Source: an uncultured Clostridium sp.
GTDB taxonomy: Bacteria; Bacillota; Clostridia; Lachnospirales; Lachnospiraceae
DNA: 44,045 nt
Direction of reading: 5' to 3'
NCBI GenBank assembly: GCA_946553025.1
Contig: CAMNRM010000042.1
Location: 1 to 44,045, forward strand
The translations under genes were made by a program, and so were the position numbers. Of this stretch, positions 9,813-9,882 are shown piece by piece; position 1 is the stretch's first letter, and each line of letters begins with the position of its first letter. The notes under the pieces are model-generated. The model did not search any database. It had not been told where the DNA came from and saw only the letters and a list, made by a program, of their open reading frames with translations.

Positions 9813-9882
9813 AATGACTGCTATACCCACTTAGCTACATATCCTTGGGATATGGCAGGATTCGAACCTGCGACAAATCATT
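9813..9882 (-). ncRNA. circularly permuted tRNA-like domain (Y RNA/YrlA-like)
   Basis: Read on the minus strand, a full tRNA core is present with its halves swapped. First come the anticodon-stem 3' strand ATGAT (9881-9877), a 5-base variable loop TTGTC (9876-9872), a T-arm GCAGG-TTCGAAT-CCTGC (9871-9855) and the 3' acceptor strand CATATCC (9854-9848). After a CAA cap come the 5' acceptor strand GGATATG (9844-9838), U8-A9, a D-arm GCTA-AGTGGGTA-TAGC (9835-9820), A26 and the anticodon 5' strand GTCAT (9818-9814). The acceptor has 7 of 7 Watson-Crick pairs. Tertiary positions U8, A14, G15, G18, G19, A21, C48, T54, T55, C56 and A58 are all canonical. Bacterial YrlA-type Y RNAs are known to carry a tRNA-mimic domain, and in Salmonella lie in the rsr-yrl-rtcBA region. 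I infer a related RNA here. Alternatives are a rearranged tRNA pseudogene or a permuted pre-tRNA. A competing local hairpin (AGTCAT with ATGACT, 9819-9796) is also possible. Confidence 0.75.

What the first reader, a model, noticed from the sequence alone, without database searches (positions are those of the whole stretch)
9813..9882. A complete tRNA core in circularly permuted order directly downstream of rtcB
Seen: on the minus strand, 210 bases past the rtcB stop, a T-arm and 3' acceptor strand are followed after CAA by the matching 5' acceptor strand (7/7 pairs), U8-A9, D-arm and anticodon 5' strand. The anticodon stem closes with the 3' strand that comes first. All usual tertiary positions are canonical (U8, A14, G15 with C48, G18-G19, A21, T54-T55-C56, A58). 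Known: YrlA-type bacterial Y RNAs carry a tRNA-mimic domain, and in Salmonella yrl RNAs lie beside rsr and rtcBA. Inference: this is a Y RNA-like tRNA mimic tied to RtcB but without a visible Ro60 gene. It could also be a permuted tRNA needing end-joining, for which RtcB would be the ligase.
Basis: partly seen in the sequence, partly recalled or inferred. Interest (0 to 1): 0.9.

Follow-up and report, generated by a model that had tools for sequence, protein, structure and literature searches.

The report
tRNA-mimic RNA beside RtcB and vault-like protein
Between the genes for an RNA-mending enzyme and a vault-like ring protein, this bacterium appears to encode a non-coding RNA that imitates a transfer RNA; it is one member of a widespread, little-studied RNA-repair module whose purpose can be put to the test.

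Summary
On the minus strand, 9885-9812, lies a complete tRNA core in permuted order: T-arm, acceptor stem closed by a 3-nt loop, D-arm, open anticodon stem. A covariance model built from other lineages finds it at 54.6 bits; 97.4% of 418 pair cells hold.

It is no permuted tRNA, and by the tests made no Ro60 Y RNA: acceptors called in relatives run 5 to 9 bp, mostly with 3-5 nt loops, Rfam YrlA matches only its tRNA-like part below the gathering score, and 0 of 11 genus genomes hold TROVE.

The RtcB-SPFH-ncRNA association is already in print (Burroughs & Aravind 2016, seen only through citing text). Function is inferred.

The parts
9812..9885 (-). tRNA-mimic core: open anticodon stem, T-arm, closed acceptor stem, U8-A9, D-arm in permuted order
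   Evidence: Sequence; Rfam YrlA 44.2 bits, model positions 23-89 of 114; R2 54.6 bits; covariation
9899..9928 (-). 5' domain hairpin GGTGCC...GGTATACC
   Evidence: Recognisable in all 23 sequences aligned, window included; pairs picked after scanning the columns: T-A 20 / C-G 3 and G-C 21 / A-T 1 / G-T 1
9932..9955 (-). 5' outer hairpin GGG..ATTC..GAAT..CCC
   Evidence: Predicted fold of 9895-9960 (z -1.48, 20 of 200 shuffles fold as well); similar hairpins in genus relatives by eye
9786..9802 (-). Anticodon-arm-like hairpin CATGA CTAGGGA TCATG (5 bp, 7-nt loop, U33, G37)
   Evidence: 17 of 62 relatives carry a hairpin obeying the same rule after a T-loop, 1.0 expected; 0 of the 6 other genus genomes do
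9674..9681 (-). Conserved 3' motif GGATACCG
   Evidence: GGATACC within 600 nt upstream of SPFH in 52 of 68 loci, 2.2 expected on shuffling, reverse complement in 2
8342..9454 (-). SPFH/Band-7 (slipin-like, vault-like) protein, 370 aa from the ATG at 9454; the ORF listing starts it at 9496
10100..11506 (-). RtcB RNA ligase (ORF as listed; similarity to relatives begins near 11338)
   Evidence: Pfam RtcB 377.7 bits; orthologues 81-84% identical in 5 other genus genomes
13955..15283 (+). WYL-domain regulator, divergent, conserved neighbour
   Evidence: Pfam WYL 30.8 bits; similarity in relatives
15316..16320 (+). Second WYL-type regulator
   Evidence: PADLOC WYL model 35.8 bits, no Pfam match; similarity in relatives

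Best explanation
This is the non-coding RNA partner of an SPFH/Band-7, vault-like protein in an RtcB RNA-repair module. Shown by computation: a conserved, covarying tRNA mimic with a capped acceptor stem, conserved flanking elements, and linkage to SPFH and, mostly, rtcB. Inferred: the RNA is made with the rtcB-SPFH operon and is cut from or stays within that transcript; the SPFH protein assembles into a ring or cage and holds the RNA by its flanking parts; the tRNA elbow with an open anticodon stem, which looks like a tRNA cut in its anticodon loop, is the effector end that docks or gauges RtcB and tRNA-binding partners. It would be to SPFH what YrlA is to Ro60.
For: R2 finds the window and the mimic in all 15 sister loci given to it. 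97.4% of 418 cells pair and the covariation score is 0.70, against at most 0.13 when slid and 0 of 500 shuffles. Genus: RNA in 7 of 7 genomes with this SPFH (one search lists 6; G010). In 391 class genomes the 5 matches above 60 bits all adjoin an SPFH relative, 44-46% identical in the four other than the window. In 68 SPFH loci: T-arm plus acceptor upstream in 47, reversed control 1; rtcB similarity, always on the SPFH strand, in 40. AlphaFold model and fold match to major vault protein. A citing preprint states that bacterial MVP homologues share operons with ncRNAs and with RtcB (passages).
Against: No transcript or binding data. The RNA lies upstream of SPFH wherever it was called, as a cis-acting leader would. 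On two measures do not stand out from shuffles: pairs with double-sided change (14; 99 of 500 shuffles reach it) and further pair types (225 of 500). R1 also scores tandem tRNA genes and Ro60-linked Y RNAs, at up to 59 bits. all missed G010's copy, so their silence on the 4 genus genomes without SPFH is not proof of absence. 21 of 68 loci gave no unit in the strict scan; R1 recovers L082, L085 and L089 strongly and others weakly, and has no row for L144 or L146. Units were called only in Bacillota and Bacteroidota loci. No sigma-70-like promoter and no minus-strand terminator around the RNA. The 100-nt fold is only mildly better than shuffles (16 of 200 as good) and pairs the anticodon strands differently.
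Confidence: 0.72

Rival explanations
1. Cis-acting leader of the SPFH gene: the tRNA mimic in the 5' UTR senses a tRNA-binding protein, or damaged-tRNA stress, and sets SPFH expression.
For: Same strand and a few hundred bases upstream of SPFH in the 47 of 68 loci with a unit; not found away from SPFH above 60 bits in 391 genomes.
Against: Two T-arm/acceptor units in 13 of 68 loci and anticodon-arm-like hairpins are more than a leader needs; in 6 of the 7 TROVE genomes the Y RNA likewise sits just upstream of TROVE (in G445 it lies behind), and Y RNA is reported to tether Rsr to PNPase (passages).
Confidence: 0.17
2. A YrlA-type Y RNA for Ro60, with the Ro60 gene lost or too diverged to detect.
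For: Rfam YrlA is the best family, E 1.5e-8; same permuted order.
Against: Only model positions 23-89 match, below the gathering score of 69; TROVE in 0 of 11 genus genomes; in G279 and G386 a TROVE-linked Y RNA and an SPFH-linked RNA exist as separate loci.
Confidence: 0.06
3. A circularly permuted tRNA gene whose ends RtcB would join.
For: All tRNA core positions canonical; rtcB adjacent.
Against: Capped acceptors of 5 to 9 bp with 3-5 nt loops where resolved them in the clade; no conserved anticodon loop would form on joining; ARAGORN finds no tRNA here.
Confidence: 0.02
4. Remnants of ordinary tRNA genes.
For: Tandem tRNA genes imitate the permuted order and score in R1.
Against: Covariation of the stems and conserved synteny.
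Confidence: 0.01

Closest known systems
SPFH/Band-7-linked tRNA-like RNA of RtcB repair systems (Burroughs & Aravind 2016; paper not held, abstract recalled, association seen in citing passages of PMC13404743)
   Same: RtcB, Band-7 (MVP-homologous) protein and an ncRNA in one operon
   Different: I could not compare sequence or drawn structure. Parts I saw in no passage read: capped acceptor, two-unit forms, GGATACCG motif, varied anticodon arms, WYL pair
YrlA bacterial Y RNA (Rfam RF02553)
   Same: Permuted tRNA-like domain with D- and T-arms and a closed acceptor; in the rtcBA operon of Salmonella (passages)
   Different: No match in the window to the YrlA model outside the tRNA-like domain, other flanking domains, no TROVE gene found, SPFH partner instead
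Eukaryotic vault particle (major vault protein and vault RNA)
   Same: SPFH protein with beta repeats, SPFH domain and long helix, partnered with a small RNA
   Different: Much shorter protein; cage not shown; vault RNA not compared here
Permuted tRNA genes (recalled)
   Same: Order of halves
   Different: Acceptor capped by a tiny loop and of variable length, anticodon open

Membership tests
YrlA Y RNA (RF02553) | tRNA-like domain with D-arm, T-arm and closed acceptor | tested here: met
   Model positions 23-89 matched
YrlA Y RNA (RF02553) | Score at or above Rfam gathering threshold (69 bits) | tested here: not met
   44.2 bits; 0 of 11 genus genomes over the cut-off. In one search no genome of 391 passed it either, TROVE-linked ones included, so the cut-off is strict for this class
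YrlA Y RNA (RF02553) | Basal Ro60-binding stem (model positions outside 23-89) | tested here: inconclusive
   Not matched in the window; one relative, L044, aligned over 1-114 at 25.6 bits, E 0.32
YrlA Y RNA (RF02553) | Ro60/TROVE protein in the genome | tested here: not met
   0 of 11 genus genomes; the same search rang in 7 of the 27 genomes given
SPFH-linked tRNA-like RNA of RtcB systems | SPFH/Band-7 gene adjacent | tested here: met
   Pfam Band_7; 7 of 7 genus genomes with RNA
SPFH-linked tRNA-like RNA of RtcB systems | RtcB in the same locus | tested here: met
   Window and 5 other genus genomes; not in G007
SPFH-linked tRNA-like RNA of RtcB systems | Same RNA as the published tRNA-like molecule | not testable with these tools
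   Paper not held
Permuted tRNA gene | Standard 7-bp acceptor able to be opened into two ends | tested here: not met
   7 bp in the window, but 5 to 9 bp with 3-5 nt loops in the 7 clade loci resolved (of L080-L090; L086 got an alternative pairing, L082, L085, L089 no call)
Permuted tRNA gene | Anticodon loop formed by the joined halves | tested here: not met
   Anticodon strands run on into unlike flanks
Vault-like (MVP-type) SPFH protein | Beta repeats, SPFH domain and long C-terminal helix in one chain | tested here: met
Vault-like (MVP-type) SPFH protein | Assembly into a cage | not testable with these tools
   No oligomer prediction or experiment

The most novel reading that the evidence does not exclude
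The locus encodes a bacterial proto-vault: a ring or cage of SPFH protein loaded with a tRNA-mimic RNA whose capped, uncharged tRNA units show either an anticodon arm (with different anticodons in different species) as bait for anticodon nucleases or a mimic of a cut tRNA, and hand damaged tRNA to RtcB. The eukaryotic vault and its RNA could descend from such a particle.
Probability: 0.12. Interest if true: 0.9.

Novelty: new member of a known kind. Interest (0 to 1): 0.55.

Why it matters
RtcB is widespread, but what guides it to broken RNA in bacteria is unclear. A conserved RNA that looks like a cut tRNA, partnered with a vault-like protein, gives a concrete candidate. It may be testable in E. 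coli: 1,623 of 5,426 complete genomes carry a slipin gene related to this one, although its upstream tRNA-like hairpin is only weakly matched by my model (12 bits). It also bears on the open question of what vaults and their RNAs do; against that link, a preprint reports human vault RNA1 genes not to be critical in RNA damage or repair (passages).

Tried and rejected
Permuted group I or II intron was considered because the order resembles a permuted intron-exon; no Rfam intron family appeared in cmscan of 9480-10110 up to E 10 or of six relatives up to E 0.5. tmRNA was considered for the same order and dropped because the acceptor is capped and the D-arm has a stem. Rfam YrlA as a genome scanner was unspecific: it rang in 7 of 14 control genomes at E 0.001 and 2 of 14 at 1e-5, and several class hits were tandem tRNA genes. 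R1 in 391 genomes matched in 359 at E 1e-4; of the 25 loci fetched below 60 bits, 23 hold ARAGORN tRNA genes and 2 are Ro60-linked Y RNAs (with 35 and 44); the other weaker matches were not examined. That run used stricter filters.

The anticodon-arm reading is weak near home: none of the six other genus genomes passed the rule, and 2 of the 11 loci L080-L090 did (L083, L088). The script took the last T-loop by pattern and sometimes picked a wrong one, and I did not check the place of each of the 17 hairpins (L119's, for one, is not its tRNA-like arm).

Stem counts lean towards pairing, because the script chose the best T-arm and anticodon offset. A4 used 22 of those 31 sequences; left out were G001, G003, G010, L082, L085, L089 (long or bulged acceptors), L136, L141 and L143. 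A6 used 12 of the 15 from outside the clade, without L129, L136 and L143. R2 also gave two matches of 28.4 and 25.7 bits in L024 at a place where one search has ordinary tRNA genes. The WYL queries include proteins of two genomes that are themselves among the 68 loci.

SPFH homologues in phage records: none; one viral contig with only 177 bases upstream. E. coli, Citrobacter and Burkholderia loci: R1 gives 12.3, 12.1 and 29.6 bits, so only a T-arm with a following hairpin is claimed there.

Paper searches: SPFH, tRNA-like and RtcB together gave 0 papers; some searches gave the listings used. The main paper is not held, so I make no claim that the architecture is unpublished.

Full report
What is there. 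On the minus strand the order is rtcB (ending at 10100), a non-coding stretch, then an SPFH/Band-7 gene (8342-9454). In the stretch, 9885-9812 is a tRNA core in permuted order: anticodon 3' strand, T-arm, acceptor stem closed by CAA, TA, D-arm, anticodon 5' strand. ARAGORN does not call it. In Rfam it stays below every gathering score; the only strong match is YrlA, 44.2 bits, positions 23-89 of 114, gathering score 69.

Not chance. The same element lies downstream of the orthologous rtcB in all six genus genomes that have this rtcB (G000, G001, G002, G003, G008, G010; 81-84% identical to the window's in the other five). In an alignment of 22 copies 97.4% of 418 cells pair and the covariation score is 0.70, against at most 0.13 for slid controls and 0 of 500 shuffles; the plain number of pairs with double-sided change, 14 of 19, is not unusual against shuffles (99 of 500). 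A looser parse of 31 copies gave 567 of 589 paired cells. Model R2, built from 12 copies with none from the window's clade, recovers the window at 54.6 bits and the mimic in all 15 clade loci supplied.

What it goes with. In the genus, the close SPFH gene (74% or more) is in 7 of 11 genomes. The RNA is in those 7 (6 by R1 at E 1e-13; G010 by reading and R2). It was not found in the other 4, but those searches also missed G010's copy, so that absence is soft. G007 has RNA and SPFH, a WYL fragment upstream on its contig, and only a distant rtcB elsewhere. In 391 genomes of the class, the 5 matches above 60 bits all adjoin a full-length SPFH relative; of 25 lower loci fetched, 23 hold ordinary tRNA genes and 2 are Y RNAs of Ro60 loci (with 35 and 44). 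A scan of named genomes with the SPFH alignment gave 68 loci, among them Lachnospiraceae, Oscillospiraceae, Ruminiclostridium, Desulfosporosinus, Paenibacillus, Shimazuella, Flavobacterium, Saprospiraceae, Breznakiella and Treponema. Within 1 kb upstream of SPFH 47 of 68 have a T-arm followed by an acceptor hairpin of at least 5 bp, reversed control 1; these 47 are from Bacillota and Bacteroidota (phylum names recalled). rtcB similarity is present in 40 of 68 and WYL similarity in 37 of 68; a number of loci are cut by contig ends.

Architecture of the family. Upstream of the mimic is a hairpin GGTGCC...GGTAT.CC, recognisable in the 23 sequences aligned, with compensatory changes. Downstream is GGATACC, in 52 of 68 loci against 2.2 expected. 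In 13 of 68 loci two T-arm/acceptor units follow each other. After the last T-loop, 17 of 62 loci carry a 5-bp, 7-nt hairpin with Y32, U33, R37; 1.0 expected. Their anticodons differ: for instance UUU in L105, GUU in L129, UUC in L134, CAA in L094 (the numbering is recalled convention). The window's own would be AGG at 9802-9786; the other six genus genomes lack a rule-abiding loop, so this part is not firm for the genus.

How it works, inferred. In Deinococcus, Y RNA tethers Rsr (Ro60) to PNPase; in Salmonella the YrlA tRNA-like part is not a substrate of the anticodon nuclease and is discussed as a possible inhibitor of it (passages of PMC7790460). By the same logic the SPFH protein would hold the flanking domains and offer the tRNA elbow. 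An open anticodon stem gives the unit the look of a tRNA cut at its anticodon, RtcB's kind of substrate. Whether the RNA docks RtcB, baits nucleases or regulates SPFH is not settled by sequence.

Known or new. The association was reported in 2016; I recall that abstract as naming SPFH/Band-7 modules with a novel tRNA-like molecule, but the paper was not available. I therefore file this as a member of that kind. It works like a Y RNA but fails two tested membership features of YrlA (gathering score and TROVE gene).

Noticed in passing
L180:5790-5850, L179, L182: E. coli and Citrobacter have a full-length slipin homologue (31-33% identical) with a T-arm plus acceptor-like hairpin about 185 nt upstream and a nucleotidyltransferase gene behind; in Citrobacter rtcR is divergent, in E. 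coli it is not adjacent. The upstream stretch is in 1,624 and the gene in 1,623 of 5,426 complete E. coli genomes. A sigma-54-like TGGCACG motif precedes it (recalled consensus). The 61-nt fold alone is no better than shuffles (36 of 200).
   Followed up: partly
window 11809-13716: A CHAP/choline-binding repeat protein gene sits between rtcB and the divergent WYL pair; in G001, G002, G003 and G008 the WYL similarity begins about 135-405 bases from the rtcB similarity.
   Followed up: partly
window 10064-10092: A 29-base stretch behind rtcB, palindromic by eye, has at least 10 other copies in the genome (28-39 bases, 89-100% identical), one of them in this window at 19853-19880.
   Followed up: no
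L156 (G238), L053/L158 (G445): Ro60-linked Y RNA loci also have WYL genes (L156) or rtcB (L158) beside them, so the two RNP modules share neighbours.
   Followed up: no
L181:4618-4691 (Burkholderia multivorans): Upstream of the slipin homologue lies what looks like an unpermuted tRNA-like unit without CCA, by eye; R1 29.6 bits.
   Followed up: no
L021, L024, L044 downstream of the window-type RNA: G002, G008 and G010 share, by eye, a hairpin with loop AAGGTSASAGGG in the 3' part of the region, not seen in the window; no Rfam family matched it up to E 0.5.
   Followed up: no
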